From positions 1 through 21,330 of IMG/VR virus record IMGVR_UViG_3300037316_000194: a stretch of 21,330 bases of DNA. The stretch is one strand, 5' to 3'. Shown here one piece after another: positions 6,980-18,719 of this stretch. Within the stretch, counting starts at the first letter, position 1, and the number at the start of each line of letters is the position of its first letter. The notes under the pieces are model-generated. The model did no database searches. It saw only the letters and a list, made by a program, of their open reading frames with translations, and was not told where the DNA came from. The position numbers and the translations under genes were made by a program. The stretch comes from a virus.

Positions 6980-7127
6980 ATCGTGATTTGTGATTCGTGA
7001 ATCGTGACCCGTAATTCGCGAGCACGAAGACGATTCCGCGCTTCACAATTCACTCCAGGCGAAGCCGTTTGCAAAGTTTACTTCATCAGTTTGCTCCACG
7101 AATCACTAATCACAGTTCACGAATCAC
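6976..7127. repeat. Family A inverted array, GTGAATC subtype
   Basis: The left arm GTGAATCGTGATTTGTGATT and following units overlap the preceding stop codon. The right arm CACGAATCACTAATCACAGT then TCACGAATCAC lies at 7097-7127. The spacer of about 80 bp contains no gene. Confidence 0.75.
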
Positions 7128-7152
7128 GCTTACCGTAAGGAGAGAGAACGAT

Positions 7153-7776
7153 ATGCAAAGTGACACCGCGGTGATTGCAAATATCACGGAGCAGCACTAC
7201 ATGGCGCATCGAATGTACGGCACGTTTCAGATAGCCGGGCGCGCGGAAGGGGAAGCGTGCGCGCTGACGCGCGTTACGCCGCGCACGGCCGTGATGGACT
7301 ATGGCGACAAGCGCGTTTTGCCGCTGCCGATCGCGGCGCGCGAAATTGCCGAGGACATTTGCCGCGAAATCAATTCCGACGCGGGGGAGCGGAGTTTCCT
7401 GGGAGTCTTCGTGTGCGCGGGAGACGCGCCCACCGAAGAGGAGTTGAGGAGCGCGCAAGAGAGGCTCGACGAATTTTACCGCGCGCTGGTGGCGGGGGCG
7501 GACCGCGAGTGGGAACGTTCGCACTCGTTTCTCTTCATTCACGATTTGCAACGGCGGGCCGCGTCGAGGCTGGGCCTGCAGAAGGAATGGCATTATCAGG
7601 CGCGCGAGACCGAGGAGTGTCCCGGGTGCGGCGAACGGGTCAAGCCGGGCGTCGCGGTGTGCAAATCGTGCCACGCGATTCTGAATCGCGAGAAGGCGCT
7701 GGCGCTGGGACTGATTCAGCCGCCGGCCGATGGATTGCCACAGAGACACAGGGGCACGGAGAAGAGCAAAGACTAG
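7153..7776 (+). CDS. Phage-cluster protein with C-terminal zinc ribbon
   Basis: A 207-residue protein. The ATG at 7153 follows AAGGAGAG (7137-7144) at good spacing. A longer reading from 7069 would add repeat-encoded residues (FAPRITNHSSRIT) and is rejected. The body is alpha/beta and acidic, including EIAEDICREINSD and EEELRSAQERLDEFYRAL. Near the C-terminus CPGCGERVKPGVAVCKSCHA carries two CxxC pairs ten residues apart, a rubredoxin-like zinc ribbon that could bind nucleic acid or protein. The last 15 or so residues (GLPQRHRGTEKSKD) are read from a family C repeat, so the native C-terminus was probably shorter or different. I know no specific family. A minor structural or assembly role is only inferred from context. 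Confidence 0.75.
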   Translation: MQSDTAVIANITEQHYMAHRMYGTFQIAGRAEGEACALTRVTPRTAVMDYGDKRVLPLPIAAREIAEDICREINSDAGERSFLGVFVCAGDAPTEEELRSAQERLDEFYRALVAGADREWERSHSFLFIHDLQRRAASRLGLQKEWHYQARETEECPGCGERVKPGVAVCKSCHAILNREKALALGLIQPPADGLPQRHRGTEKSKD

Positions 7777-13775: not shown

Positions 13776-16475
13776 ATGAGCATTTCAGGGACAATTGACG
13801 CGCCGCTGGATTTGTTTGGCGGGCTGGTGACCGACATGGCCGCGGCGGACTTGCCGCAAGGGGTGTCGCCCGATTGCCGGGACGTGGCGTTTCTTCCAGG
13901 CGCGGTGAAAACTCGGCCCGGACTTTTGTCAGTTTACTCACCACTGACTGGTAACCCAACAGTTAACTACCTGAAGACTTACACGCAGCCGAGCCTTGTG
14001 AAGACGCTGCTGGCGATCGATTCGGCGGGAACGCTGTGGGGCGAGAATTCTCCCGGCGTGCTGACGCGGATCGCGGCGGGGCTTACGCCGAACGCCGCGG
14101 CGAGTTCCACATCCTTATTTAGCCGCGAGTATATCGCGCAGCACGACGGCAACTTCGGTTTGGACATGCCGCGCCAATATGACGGCACAAATTTGGATCG
14201 CGTGAGCCAGATCGGCCCGGGCGCGGGTCCCGCGGCAGTCGCGGACATCCTTGCGAATATCTCCGCCATTTCGCGCACGTCGAATGTCGTGACGGTGACC
14301 ACGGCGGCGCCAACGGGATTGCTCGCGACGGACCAGGTCGTCATCGCAGGCGTCACGGACACGACTTACAACGGAACTTTTCCGATTGCGTCGATTATCG
14401 ATTCGCTGCATTTCACCTACGCGCAAACAAATTCCAATTCGTCCTCCAGCGGAGGCACGGCCGCTCCAGTCGGTTCCATCAGCGCGGGCGTGCATCAGTG
14501 CGCCGTGATTTTCGTGACGCGGCAGGGTTACCTGACGCGGCCTTCGCCGCCGATATCCTGGACGGCGGCCGGCGGCCGGCGCGCGAACGTGACGGGAATT
14601 CCTTCGGTCGCTACGCTGCCAAATATCGTCGCGCGAATTCTGGCGTTTACCGGAGCGGGCGGCGATTTGTTTTACTACACGACGGGCCTGGACGGCGCGC
14701 CGCAGATGCAAGTGTTCGACAACAGCGCCTCGTCGTTCGTCGTGGATTTTTCGGACACTGCGCTCTTGGCGGGGATTGAAGCGGATTCGCTTTTTCAACT
14801 GGTGGAGCTCGGCGAATGCGCCGGCGTGATCGGCTACTCGGAGCGCCTGTTCTGGTGGGGCGAGCGCAACAAACAAAATAATTGGGAAAACCTCACATTT
14901 GACGGTGGATTCGGCGGCACGGGAAACAATGTGCCGCTGGGCTGGACTCCCGATGCAACATTTTTCGCCGGCGGCGGCTACGACTCGAGCGGAGAAGCGA
15001 TCTGGGGCGGCGATTACGCAATTCTCGGTGACGGCGTCACGGCGACGCGCGGGCTTATGACGCAGACGGCCGTGAGCGACTACAATGGCGCGCCACGCCT
15101 GCAAGCGAATACCGGCTACTCGGCGCGCGTGCGTGTGCGCATGACGGGCGCGCTCGCGCAAGGAACGCTGCACGTACACGTTTACAGCGCGTCGCTGGGA
15201 ATTTCGACCACCGGCGTTTCCGTTCCCGCCGCGCAAATCACGGCCGGCGCGTGGAAAGAATTTATCGCTCCGATCACTCCCGCGCTCGGCTTCACCACGA
15301 TTCCGTCCGACCTGCTGCTGCGCGTCTACGCCGACGGAACGCCCACGCTCAATGCCGGATTCCTGGTCGACAACATCGAGATTTTTCCCGCCGCACAGCC
15401 GTATAACACGTCGCTCGTGCGCGCGTCCTTCGCCGAGGATCCGGAAAGCTACGACGGCGTCAGCGGATTCATGAACGTGTCCGAAAACGACGGGCAGACC
15501 GTGCGCGCGGCGTTTCTCTTGCGGGAGCGGCTCTACCTTGTGAAGGACCGCTCGCTCCACGTCACCGAAGACGACGGCGTGAACGAGCCCGCTTCCTGGA
15601 CGATCAACGAAGTGTCAAACGCCGTTGGCACGCCATCGGTCGCCGGAGTGGACACGGGCGAGGACTGGGCCGTAATCGCCGGCCGCGCGGGCATGTACAT
15701 TTTCGACGGCGGCGAGCCCATAAAAATTTCGCAGGAGATTCAGCCGCTATGGGACACGATCAACTGGGCCGCCGGGCAAACGCTCTGGGTGCGCGTGGAC
15801 ACGCGCAACAAGCGCATCCTGTGCGGCGTGCCAACCGGTACGGCCACTTCTCCCAACCTCGTTCTGGTGCTGGACTATCGCAGCCTGTCGAGCGCCGGTG
15901 AAATCGAATCGCTCGGCTCGATCCTGTTCTCGACGCTGTCGGGAAAACTGTACGCCGTGGGCCGCTCGCGCAAGTGGTGTCCGTGGAACATCACGGCGAA
16001 TTCGTGCGCGCTTGCCGAACGCCCGGACGGCACCGCCCAGGTGTTTCTCGGCAACGGGCTCGTCGGCGGAGCTGGCAACGGAAAAATCTATCAGCTTTCC
16101 GACACGCAATTTTCCGACGACGGCGCGGCAATTAATTCCTTCTACACGACATACTTTTTTCTGAGCCACGATCTCGAACAGGCCTATCAAGTTCGCTCGC
16201 ACCGGAAACTTTTTGCGTACCTGGCTATCTACGCCGAAGGGGCAGGGAACTTGAACCTCTCCGCCTTCGTCGACAACGAAGCGTATCCGACGGCGCTCGC
16301 GCCGCTGCCGCTTTCCTCGCCTTCGCCGAAGGATCTCGAACTGCCCATCAATCTGCTCGGCGAACGCGTCGCGTTTCAGGTGGGCACAAACTCCCCCGGC
16401 GCATGGTTCAAACTAGAGCGATTCATTCCGTCGCTGCTGCCAGATCCGTGGTCACCGGTAAGAGGAGGGAATTGA
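13776..16475 (+). CDS. Tail nozzle/tubular-B-like phage protein with a jelly-roll insert
   Basis: An 899-residue protein. The opening DLFGGLVTDMAAADLPQGVSPDCRDVAF, then KTRPGLLSVY, is the pattern of T7 gp12-like nozzle proteins (a GG/N-terminal turn, then a gene-product-style RPG). Residues about 163-232 form a small beta domain (VVTVTTAAPTGL...VVIAGVTD...YNGTF) common in phage tails. About 385-545 reads like a carbohydrate-binding jelly roll (GWTPDATFFAGGGYDSSGEA; ANTGYSARVRVRMTGA; LVDNIEIFPAA). The remainder (RLYLVKDRSLHVT, GRAGMYIFDGGEP, LVLVLDYRS) suggests a beta-propeller. No good Shine-Dalgarno precedes the ATG, which follows a family A array. It lies directly after the adaptor-like gene, as expected. 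The jelly-roll could contact host polysaccharide. The nozzle role is inferred. Confidence 0.75.
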   Translation: MSISGTIDAPLDLFGGLVTDMAAADLPQGVSPDCRDVAFLPGAVKTRPGLLSVYSPLTGNPTVNYLKTYTQPSLVKTLLAIDSAGTLWGENSPGVLTRIAAGLTPNAAASSTSLFSREYIAQHDGNFGLDMPRQYDGTNLDRVSQIGPGAGPAAVADILANISAISRTSNVVTVTTAAPTGLLATDQVVIAGVTDTTYNGTFPIASIIDSLHFTYAQTNSNSSSSGGTAAPVGSISAGVHQCAVIFVTRQGYLTRPSPPISWTAAGGRRANVTGIPSVATLPNIVARILAFTGAGGDLFYYTTGLDGAPQMQVFDNSASSFVVDFSDTALLAGIEADSLFQLVELGECAGVIGYSERLFWWGERNKQNNWENLTFDGGFGGTGNNVPLGWTPDATFFAGGGYDSSGEAIWGGDYAILGDGVTATRGLMTQTAVSDYNGAPRLQANTGYSARVRVRMTGALAQGTLHVHVYSASLGISTTGVSVPAAQITAGAWKEFIAPITPALGFTTIPSDLLLRVYADGTPTLNAGFLVDNIEIFPAAQPYNTSLVRASFAEDPESYDGVSGFMNVSENDGQTVRAAFLLRERLYLVKDRSLHVTEDDGVNEPASWTINEVSNAVGTPSVAGVDTGEDWAVIAGRAGMYIFDGGEPIKISQEIQPLWDTINWAAGQTLWVRVDTRNKRILCGVPTGTATSPNLVLVLDYRSLSSAGEIESLGSILFSTLSGKLYAVGRSRKWCPWNITANSCALAERPDGTAQVFLGNGLVGGAGNGKIYQLSDTQFSDDGAAINSFYTTYFFLSHDLEQAYQVRSHRKLFAYLAIYAEGAGNLNLSAFVDNEAYPTALAPLPLSSPSPKDLELPINLLGERVAFQVGTNSPGAWFKLERFIPSLLPDPWSPVRGGN

Positions 16476-16689: not shown

Positions 16690-17709
16690 ATGTGGGAAGA
16701 ACGCAAGAAAATCATTGCGCAAATCGAAAAAAAGCGTGACTCGCGCCTGATTTGCTACCTGACTTCGGATCGTCAGAACGCCATCGCTATCATTGCGAAG
16801 GACGTTATTCCTTTTTTTTATAATCAACTAATGCAGTGGGGCAAGGTGAATCGGCTTGATATTCTTGTGTTCACAACTGGCGGCGACACGCTAGCTGCGT
16901 TCGGATTGGGCCAGCTCGTTAGAGAATTTGCGGAATGGGTAGGTGTTTTGGTTCCTGAGAAATGTTTCAGTGCGGGGACCTTGTTTGCTCTTTGTGCAGA
17001 CGAGATTTACATGACTGGCGCTGGCACGCTTAGCCCAATCGATCCTAGTATCACGACGCCTTTGAACCCAGTGGCCGAAGGTCAGATGCCCGGACAAAGG
17101 CAACTCTTGCCGGTAAGTGTTGAAAGTGTTGCCGGTTTCAAGAGCCTGCTACAGGAAGAATGGGGGATCAAGAGCGAAGAGTCATTAGTGCAGGTTTACA
17201 AGCTCTTAGCGGAACGTGTACACCCTCTCGCACTGGGGGACGTCTACAGGAGCCGCCAACAAATCGAAAGACTCGCTCGTCAACTGCTGGTTGGCCACCG
17301 GAAGGACAAGGCAAGTATCACGAAGATTATCCAAACCCTTACAAGGGGGTTAGGTTCACACGACTACCCAATTTCGAGGAAAGAGGCTCGCATGCTAATG
17401 GGCCGCCAGATAGCTGCCGATGACACTGATTTGGAGAAGCTTGTATGGCAGCTTTTTCAAGACTATAGACAGGAATTGTCTCTTGGAGTGCCCTACAATC
17501 CAACGGCAGAACTCGCAAAACAACAAGCTGCTGGAACCCAGGTCCCTTTGCGAATCAAGCTGAACATGGCGGTCATTGAGAGTATCCAATCGAGGGATGT
17601 TTTCGAGCAGGAGTCGTTGCTATCCGAAATGGTCGTTCAGGGTCCTGCCGGTCCAATGAAAGCACTTCAGCAAGCGGTAGTCGACGCGGGTTGGAAACAT
17701 TACGTGTAG
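16690..17709 (+). CDS. SDH-type serine protease (ClpP/SppA fold), cassette gene 1
   Basis: A 339-residue soluble protein of the serine dehydrogenase proteinase (SDH_sah) type, a branch of the ClpP/SppA fold. ILVFTTGGDTLAAFGLGQLV (58-77) carries the TxGG oxyanion turn. CFSAGTLFALCADEI (92-106) carries the probable nucleophile Ser94. GTLSPIDPSI (112-121) is the following conserved strand. HPLALGDVYRSRQQIERLARQLL (178-200) and SHDYPISRKEA (223-233) hold candidate histidines H178 and H224 for catalysis. There is no signal peptide or transmembrane segment, so it would act in the cytoplasm, unlike SppA. Base composition is lower in GC than flanking genes (hand count 23/60 G+C in 16801-16860, against 41/60 in 13021-13080). 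It ends 17 bp before the next gene, with which it forms an operon. The substrate is unknown. No clear Shine-Dalgarno is visible. Confidence 0.85.
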   Translation: MWEERKKIIAQIEKKRDSRLICYLTSDRQNAIAIIAKDVIPFFYNQLMQWGKVNRLDILVFTTGGDTLAAFGLGQLVREFAEWVGVLVPEKCFSAGTLFALCADEIYMTGAGTLSPIDPSITTPLNPVAEGQMPGQRQLLPVSVESVAGFKSLLQEEWGIKSEESLVQVYKLLAERVHPLALGDVYRSRQQIERLARQLLVGHRKDKASITKIIQTLTRGLGSHDYPISRKEARMLMGRQIAADDTDLEKLVWQLFQDYRQELSLGVPYNPTAELAKQQAAGTQVPLRIKLNMAVIESIQSRDVFEQESLLSEMVVQGPAGPMKALQQAVVDAGWKHYV

Positions 17710-17726
17710 CTGTTTGGGAGGCAGAC

Positions 17727-18350
17727 ATGGAAACGACTAATCACGATTTCAGTACGAATCAAGGTGTGCTCGATTCACTGGCGCCGGCCATGAGGAACGC
17801 TCAGTACACTTTTCCGACGTATAGCGAAGCGAGCCAAAGTAACATACTTTTCAATCCGGTCACAGGTTTTCGGCTCGGTGTTCCCACCGCCGAATTCTTG
17901 GCGACATCGTGCCCACCCACGATCGTGGATATTCGGCCTAACACTGCCGCACGACTTCCCGGATGGCAGGTGTTTAATCTTGCTCGACGCCTTGTTGAGG
18001 TGTTCCGAAATATCGAGAGGATCGCAGGACTCCCAGCGGACTGGGATTCATTCGGAAGCGGACGGGCTGCCCCAATCGCAGTGAATATCGCGCGCAACCT
18101 AGTCTGGAACGTCGTGGTCAAATTAGCTGCTCAAGGGGTAGACGCGACCCCCTACGATGTTGCGCCCTTGTCCGGTCGAGGTGTGCAGTTGGAGTGGCGC
18201 GGCGACGCGGGTACGATTCAGGTTGAAGTATCTGGGGAAGGCCGCTTGGGTTATCTATTGTTCCGTGGTGAGGACGCACCACGGGAAACAGAAGAGGCTG
18301 ACGACGTTTCCGAAAGCCACATTATGGCTCTAATCTCATCCTTGATTTAA
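17727..18350 (+). CDS. Conserved hypothetical protein, LPxxWDSFG family, cassette gene 2
   Basis: A 207-residue protein. The ATG at 17727 follows GGGAGG (17716-17721) at five bases; an ATG at 17691 would overlap the protease gene by 19 bp and has no better signal. LPADWDSFGSGRAAPIAVNIA (102-122), VAPLSGRGVQLEWRG (145-159) and IQVEVSGEGRLGYL (164-177) make a recognisable conserved core: LPxxWD(S/G)(F/Y)G, then a helix, then GGxxLEW and a beta hairpin. I recall this core from many bacterial proteins without assigned function, often next to a LYRRxxPDH protein as here. The N-terminal 60 residues are variable, and the C-terminal tail is acidic (GEDAPRETEEADD). It probably works with its neighbours. 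No catalytic motif is evident, so a binding or adaptor role is possible. Confidence 0.8.
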   Translation: METTNHDFSTNQGVLDSLAPAMRNAQYTFPTYSEASQSNILFNPVTGFRLGVPTAEFLATSCPPTIVDIRPNTAARLPGWQVFNLARRLVEVFRNIERIAGLPADWDSFGSGRAAPIAVNIARNLVWNVVVKLAAQGVDATPYDVAPLSGRGVQLEWRGDAGTIQVEVSGEGRLGYLLFRGEDAPRETEEADDVSESHIMALISSLI

Positions 18351-18365
18351 TGATTTGTCACTACA

Positions 18366-18719
18366 GTGGTGCAGCCAATCGTTCCCGATGATGACGACCT
18401 TCTTTACAGGCGGTTGGTTCCGGATCATCTTTATCCAGATGGAGCAGTCAAATCGAACGCGTACAAGTTAAACGGTAAGCCGGATCCCTCTGTTTCCGTG
18501 GATCTTGAAAAGCTGACCAATGTGAAAGAGTCTCTACAGCGTTCGCGTAGGGGTGATGCACTACTCGGTGTCATCAAAGTTCGGGAAGTGCGGGCCCTAG
18601 GACTGACCGTCCGCCACGACCCGACCGACGAAAATCCCGCCCATGCAATTATTGAAGGAAACACCACAAAGACGACCTGTGAGCAGCTCGCCAAGTTGAC
18701 GATGCCCCTTCAGGGATAG
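18366..18719 (+). CDS. Conserved hypothetical protein, LYRR...NPAHA family, cassette gene 3
   Basis: A 117-residue protein starting at GTG (18366; a second GTG follows at once), 15 bp after the stop of gene 2, with no clear Shine-Dalgarno, so translational coupling is likely. Motifs are DDLLYRRLVPDHL (10-22), SVDLEKLT (44-51), RALGLTVRHDP (76-86) and NPAHAIIEG (90-98). From memory these define a widespread family of short proteins of unknown function, often adjacent to LPxxWDG-type proteins. The conserved H84 and D85 (HDP) and H93 (PAH) could bind metal or form an active site, though that is speculation. There is no signal peptide or membrane segment. It is the last gene of the low-GC cassette. 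Confidence 0.8.
   Translation: MVQPIVPDDDDLLYRRLVPDHLYPDGAVKSNAYKLNGKPDPSVSVDLEKLTNVKESLQRSRRGDALLGVIKVREVRALGLTVRHDPTDENPAHAIIEGNTTKTTCEQLAKLTMPLQG

What the first reader, a model, noticed from the sequence alone, without database searches (positions are those of the whole stretch)
16690..18719. Compact cassette: SDH-type serine protease plus two conserved unknown proteins, inserted in a phage structural block
Seen: three tightly spaced co-directional genes (gaps 17 and 15 bp), lower GC than both flanks, no family A repeats between them, and an isolated promoter-like site before them. Known: gene 1 has ClpP/SppA-fold SDH features (TTGGDT, SAGT serine, HPLALG); genes 2 and 3 carry recurrent cores (LPxxWDSFG...LEW; LYRR...HDP...NPAHA). 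Inferred: a moron-like accessory system, possibly anti-phage defence, toxin control or host-protein processing. A protease with two small partners inside a prophage is a typical arrangement for a defence or exclusion module, but I know of no named system with this trio.
Basis: partly seen in the sequence, partly recalled or inferred. Interest (0 to 1): 0.75.

Follow-up and report, generated by a model that had tools for sequence, protein, structure and literature searches.

The report
Phage-borne protease-gated toxin-antitoxin-like cassette
A phage carries a three-gene cassette in which a Clp-type protease sits in front of a protein pair already suspected of defending bacteria against phages; close relatives of the protease sit in front of many unrelated toxin-antitoxin pairs, which points to a previously unrecognised way of controlling such pairs with a dedicated protease.

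Summary
In detail: three intact co-directional genes (gaps 17 and 15 bp) form a GC-poor island in a phage genome. Gene 1 is a Clp-fold SDH protease with Ser94, Asp118 and His224 present in all 118 sequences aligned. Genes 2 and 3 are divergent members of PDC-M32A/B, a named but uncharacterised phage-defence candidate. The same trio recurs in one other virus contig, with no other tested gene shared. Gene 1 relatives are usually followed by one short Ser/Thr/Asn-rich 'tag' ORF under purifying selection. In a minority a toxin-antitoxin pair follows instead: Panacea/MAG6450, MazF (twice), RelE-like, PIN, GNAT or Doc. In two of these (MazF, RelE-like) the tag is demonstrably fused to the antitoxin-position protein. 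Best reading: a modular protease-gated toxin-antitoxin-like module, with gene 2 as antitoxin or adaptor and gene 3 as effector. The tag in window gene 2 is only suggestive, the gene 3 fold is unresolved and nothing was tested in cells. New variant of a known kind; interest 0.66.

The parts
16690..17709 (+). Gene 1: cytosolic-looking Clp-fold SDH-type serine protease, 339 aa
   Evidence: PF01972 E 3.5e-18; phrog_11747 E 6e-41; aligned with 117 relatives
16969..16971 (+). codon of Ser94 (SAGT motif), putative nucleophile
   Evidence: invariant in 118/118 sequences; codon read
17041..17043 (+). codon of Asp118 (PIDPS motif), putative triad residue
   Evidence: invariant in 118/118
17359..17361 (+). 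codon of His224 (GSHDY motif), putative triad residue
   Evidence: invariant in 118/118
17727..18350 (+). Gene 2: PDC-M32A-like protein, 207 aa; proposed antitoxin/adaptor
   Evidence: PADLOC PDC-M32A C-terminus E 2e-4; 40% identical to L086 gene 2; relatives in Chloroflexota and Proteobacteria
17772..17798 (+). Possible protease-recognition tag core in gene 2 N-terminus (DSLAPAMRN; tags often read DSLxxxMKN)
   Evidence: suggestive only: strict pattern in 15/75 tags vs 2/949 background N-termini; motif matrix p 0.014; not in L086 gene 2
17961..18347 (+). Gene 2 C-terminal folded domain (two helices, five strands, helix; WDSFG ... GVQLEW core)
   Evidence: AlphaFold2 pLDDT mostly 63-89 except a 103-111 loop, against 25-41 for residues 1-78
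18366..18719 (+). Gene 3: PDC-M32B-like protein, 117 aa; proposed effector/toxin
   Evidence: PADLOC PDC-M32B E 5.8e-10; 53% identical to L086 gene 3; profile A5
13776..16475 (+). Upstream phage virion structural gene (context)
   Evidence: phrog_5838 E 1.4e-7 and phrog_3287 E 3e-7, head and packaging

Best explanation
A phage-carried, protease-gated toxin-antitoxin-like module. Gene 3 is the effector, gene 2 is its antitoxin or adaptor (folded C-terminal domain plus a flexible N-terminal recognition segment), and gene 1 is a dedicated Clp-fold protease that acts on the gene 2 N-terminus. A disturbance such as superinfection would change protease action on gene 2 and free gene 3, stopping the cell. 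Shown: the genes, an intact catalytic triad, the gene 2-3 pairing with and without the protease, and that related proteases recur before unrelated toxin-antitoxin pairs, in some cases with a shared tag fused to the antitoxin-position protein. Inferred: which protein is the toxin, that the protease cuts gene 2, the direction of control, and the trigger.
For: Genes 2 and 3 match PDC-M32A/B. Trio repeated in L086, which has no match to the window's 13 other proteins tested. Gene 1 relatives are followed by a short ORF in 82 of 118 tree rows; pN/pS of that ORF is 0.06-0.40. Toxin-antitoxin pairs in the same position: SocA_Panacea 1e-20 plus MAG6450 7e-24 (11 loci, one tested), MazF 8e-24 and 2.5e-13, GNAT 1.5e-7, PIN 3e-7, RelE-like 2khe 0.009, Fic/Doc 1.2e-9. 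A tag HMM built without them hits the antitoxin-position N-termini of L042 (2e-8) and L104 (2e-5). Partner types fall in separate places on the protease tree. 122 operon-like flanking genes showed no toxin-antitoxin family among the 25 listed. Elsewhere genes 2-3 lie between hsdM and hsdS (L158) and next to MNT/HepT (L159). Gene 2 residues 1-78 are modelled with very low confidence while residues 79-207 mostly fold.
Against: The tag is not significantly detectable in window gene 2 (E 2.9; empirical p 0.024 or 0.005 by model) and absent from L086 gene 2. The Panacea, PIN, GNAT, one MazF and Doc first ORFs are also not significant with the tag HMM. Most gene 1 relatives have no toxin at all. No toxin fold was found for gene 3: model pLDDT 62, no significant Foldseek match. 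44 of 69 control Pfam families were not listed, so some may be toxin-antitoxin. No cell or biochemical test.
Confidence: 0.4

Rival explanations
1. Protease as toxin disposer: gene 2 binds gene 3 and docks it on the protease, which degrades the toxin, as SocA delivers SocB to ClpXP. Loss of the protease or of gene 2 releases the toxin.
For: SocA, a Panacea antitoxin, is a known adaptor for ClpXP (cited in PMC8832971, read), and Panacea proteins sit next to this protease in 11 loci. A docking tag on the antitoxin fits an adaptor.
Against: The same paper reports that other Panacea antitoxins neutralise without ClpXP or Lon. Standalone tags without any toxin are the commonest arrangement, which an adaptor alone does not explain. 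No Panacea domain in window gene 2.
Confidence: 0.2
2. The protease itself is the toxin or exclusion enzyme and the tag or gene 2 is its inhibitor; toxin-antitoxin fusions are double modules in which one antitoxin holds two toxins.
For: Protease plus tag alone is a complete conserved unit, for example between Q and holin on the opposite strand in E. coli prophages (47 of 5426 genomes hold the gene), a typical moron site.
Against: Does not explain why genes 2-3 exist without the protease; toxicity of the free protease is untested.
Confidence: 0.2
3. Genes 2-3 are an effector pair of a defence system of their own (PDC-M32) and the protease is the phage sensor that replaces TIGR04255 in this lineage, not a toxin-antitoxin controller.
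For: TIGR04255 genes stand directly upstream in L136 and L137 (E 3e-26, 1e-40), and similar-looking genes in L144 and L145; position equivalent to the protease here.
Against: The L158 and L159 pairs have neither; PDC-M32 has not been shown to defend in the literature found.
Confidence: 0.12
4. Chance neighbours: an accessory protease moron next to an unrelated gene pair, with no joint function.
For: Only two trios known; each part exists without the other.
Against: Same order, tight spacing and depressed GC across all three, shared by two phages that share no other gene tested; parallel of protease plus toxin-antitoxin pairs in several phyla.
Confidence: 0.08

Closest known systems
PDC-M32 (PADLOC phage-defence candidate, proteins M32A and M32B)
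   Same: Gene 3 matches M32B over nearly its full length; gene 2 matches the C-terminal domain of M32A; same gene order in relatives
   Different: Window gene 2 lacks the roughly 260-residue N-terminal part of M32A; an SDH protease is added upstream; PDC-M32 has no known mechanism
SDH_protease PF01972 / NF047768 Clp-fold SDH serine proteinases
   Same: Fold family and Ser/Asp/His set
   Different: Scores 82 bits against a 250-bit equivalog cut-off; belongs to a mobile subfamily coupled to tag ORFs and toxin-antitoxin pairs
SocAB and Panacea toxin-antitoxin systems
   Same: Some relatives of gene 1 stand directly before a Panacea protein and its partner; SocA links an antitoxin to a Clp protease
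   Different: There the protease is the housekeeping ClpXP, encoded elsewhere; window gene 2 has no Panacea domain
Toxin-antitoxin-chaperone (SecB-like) tripartite systems
   Same: A third gene acts on antitoxins of unrelated toxin families through a short added segment (from general knowledge)
   Different: Third gene here is a protease, not a chaperone; the segment is N-terminal

Membership tests
SDH_protease (PF01972) | Score above the curated Pfam cut-off | tested here: met
   66.1 bits against 31.3
SDH_protease (PF01972) | Conserved Ser, Asp and His | tested here: met
   Ser94, Asp118, His224 invariant in 118/118
NF047768 Clp_like_SDH equivalog | Score above the 250-bit cut-off | tested here: not met
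   82 bits
PDC-M32 | M32B-type protein | tested here: met
   E 5.8e-10 over residues 9-110
PDC-M32 | M32A-type protein over its full length | tested here: not met
   Only profile positions 292-360 of 375 matched, E 2.4e-4
PDC-M32 | Protects against phages | not testable with these tools
   No assay; only library annotation and one prophage paper mention
Type II toxin-antitoxin system | Two small adjacent co-directional genes | tested here: met
   Gap 15 bp; the pair recurs in other genomes
Type II toxin-antitoxin system | Recognisable toxin fold | tested here: inconclusive
   No Pfam, NCBIfam or PDB match; low-confidence model with weak, non-significant KptA matches
Type II toxin-antitoxin system | Toxicity and neutralisation | not testable with these tools
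   Needs an expression assay
SDH-protease tag operon (described here) | Tag segment in the ORF after the protease | tested here: inconclusive
   Window gene 2: HMM E 2.9, empirical p 0.024/0.005; motif DSLAPAMRN; L086 negative
SocAB / Panacea | Panacea domain in the antitoxin | tested here: not met
   No Pfam hit in gene 2
Toxin-antitoxin-chaperone | SecB-like chaperone as third gene | tested here: not met
   Third gene is a protease

The most novel reading that the evidence does not exclude
A general, undescribed class of toxin-antitoxin-protease systems: one mobile Clp-fold protease family with its own short recognition tag, which is exchanged between otherwise unrelated antitoxins (of MazF, RelE, Doc, PIN, GNAT and Panacea-partner toxins, and of the PDC-M32 pair), so that toxin release is controlled by a dedicated protease and can be carried by phages.
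Probability: 0.35. Interest if true: 0.85.

Novelty: new variant of a known kind. Interest (0 to 1): 0.66.

Why it matters
Antitoxin turnover is usually ascribed to housekeeping proteases such as Lon and ClpXP. A protease family that travels with its own tag and with many toxin types would be a dedicated release switch, comparable to the chaperone-controlled systems, and would give PDC-M32 a testable mechanism. It would also name a conserved small gene that is unannotated in the E. coli prophage records inspected.

Tried and rejected
Single-protein searches of viral contigs, phages and plasmids with genes 2 and 3 found nothing; profiles were needed. PDLC04579 in Alphaproteobacteria and in ten locus genomes: no hits. 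Last viral scan with alphaproteobacterial gene 2: no relatives. L007 first ORF looked like gene 2 by eye but the profile did not support it. PDC-M32A N-terminus as a TIGR04255 domain: suspected, not supported (TIGR04255 proteins do not hit PDC-M32A). Gene 3 and gene 2 folds: no significant structural match; the gene 3 hint of a KptA/ADP-ribosyltransferase fold (E 0.5) is not used. Distant Chloroflexota SDH proteases (L183-L191) have no tag and no toxin-antitoxin pair, so the link is confined to one subfamily. Literature: no paper in the held library describes an SDH protease with toxin-antitoxin genes; PMC8832971 mentions unspecified proteases among accessory third genes. Promoter claim rejected as chance-level.

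Full report
1. The observation. The window is a 21,330-base IMG/VR virus record. The three ORFs exist at the stated place, with 17 and 15 bp gaps. Gene 2 starts at 17727 behind a GGGAGG ribosome site. The cassette has 52.1% GC against a window mean of 58.7%, and GC3 of 0.54-0.56 against 0.69-0.82 for the phage genes measured. The upstream gene is a virion structural protein, and a gene further upstream matches a major head protein. The promoter-like site is no better than chance.

2. What the genes are. Gene 1 matches SDH_protease PF01972 (E 3.5e-18) and the phage family phrog_11747 (E 6e-41). Ser94, Asp118, His224 and Gly64-Gly65 are invariant in 118 of 118 sequences, so the enzyme looks intact. 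The nearest solved structures by profile are the PH1510 nfeD-type proteases (E 5e-4). Genes 2 and 3 match PADLOC's candidate defence proteins PDC-M32A (C-terminal part, E 2.4e-4) and PDC-M32B (E 5.8e-10). PDC-M32 has no described mechanism; the one paper found lists it in Sinorhizobium prophages (PMC12429752).

3. The trio recurs once. L086 (IMG/VR contig 3300043385_000001) carries protease (68% identity), gene 2 (41%) and gene 3 (54%) in the same order. It lies beside tail and HK97-type capsid genes (my reading of the ORFs; not profile-tested). Thirteen other window proteins have no match in L086. The trio therefore appears to move as a unit between different phages.

4. The pair without the protease. 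A gene 3 profile found 6 of 251 Chloroflexota genomes; five have gene 2 next to gene 3 and none has the protease there. Upstream stands a TIGR04255 gene in two of them (E 1e-40 and 3e-26), and a similar-looking gene in L144 and L145 from the search in the order of G001. In L158 the pair lies between hsdM and hsdS of a type I restriction system; in L159 it is followed by a nucleotidyltransferase and a HepT-like gene.

5. The protease without the pair. In most relatives the protease stop is overlapped or closely followed by a short ORF, median 66 aa, 32% Ser/Thr/Asn; 82 of 118 tree rows have such an ORF. Its sequence is conserved across phyla and its pN/pS is 0.06-0.40 in 17 pairs, so it is a real gene. 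In E. coli the unit sits between antiterminator Q and holin on the opposite strand of prophages; 47 of 5426 genomes hold the protease gene, and the short ORF is not annotated in the records inspected.

6. The protease with toxin-antitoxin pairs. In 11 Bacillota-type loci the next gene is a SocA_Panacea-like protein (E 1e-20, one tested), in most followed by a MAG6450-family partner (E 7e-24, one tested). Single loci have MazF (L104 8e-24; L070 2.5e-13), a GNAT protein (L073), a PIN protein (L121), a RelE-like protein (L042, PDB 2khe E 0.009) and a Fic/Doc protein (L180, 1.2e-9). A profile built only from stand-alone tags hits the antitoxin-position ORF of L042 (2e-8) and L104 (2e-5), and also L037 (2e-6), whose partner is unidentified. 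On the protease tree the Panacea loci are one clade, the two MazF loci lie apart, and the window with L086 form their own clade (support 98), although long branches make deep placement unsure. Among 122 operon-like flanking genes from the same loci none of the 25 listed Pfam families is a toxin-antitoxin family; 44 further families were not shown, so this control is incomplete.

7. Does window gene 2 carry the tag? It has DSLAPAMRN near its N-terminus, and tags often read DSLxxxMKN. The strict pattern occurs in 15 of 75 tags and 2 of 949 background N-termini; the pattern was written after seeing the sequence. The profile E-value is 2.9, empirical p 0.024 or 0.005 by model, and 0.014 by motif matrix; L086 gene 2 is negative. 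I call this suggestive, not shown. The two-sequence AlphaFold2 model gives residues 1-78 very low confidence and folds most of 79-207.

8. Mechanism. By analogy of position, gene 2 is the antitoxin or adaptor and gene 3 the effector. Competing directions are set out under the rivals: the protease destroys the antitoxin, disposes of the toxin through the antitoxin as SocA does with ClpXP (PMC8832971), or is itself the toxin. Nothing here separates them; the gene-removal and Ser94Ala tests would. No fold could be assigned to gene 3 or gene 2.

9. Novelty. The parts are known families or named candidates; tripartite toxin-antitoxin systems exist. The recurrent pairing of one protease subfamily and its tag with many toxin types was not found in the held literature, which lacks most subscription journals and preprints.

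Noticed in passing
L002 (E. coli plasmid-prophage NZ_CP081794.1) 6988-7167; also L129, L130: Unannotated 59-aa ORF overlapping the end of an SDH protease gene between Q and holin; conserved and under purifying selection in related prophages.
   Followed up: partly
L158 2989-4511: PDC-M32-like gene pair embedded between hsdM and hsdS; its gene 2 is 376 aa, the full PDC-M32A length.
   Followed up: partly
L144 2475-4190, L145 2489-4225: Three-gene arrangement: TIGR04255-like protein, short gene 2, divergent gene 3; the TIGR04255 assignment here is by eye only.
   Followed up: partly
L180 2597-4363 (minus strand), same place as L161: SDH protease, 88-aa Ser/Thr-rich ORF and Doc-like gene next to a putative restriction-modification pair in a Chloroflexota genome.
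   Followed up: partly
L007 6993-8194 and L074 4486-5149: Two unidentified gene pairs directly behind the protease in Spirochaetota; those of their proteins that were scanned match nothing in Pfam.
   Followed up: no
L037 7260-7811: 183-aa unidentified protein behind a tag-bearing 89-aa ORF in a Chloroflexota genome; possible new toxin or effector.
   Followed up: no
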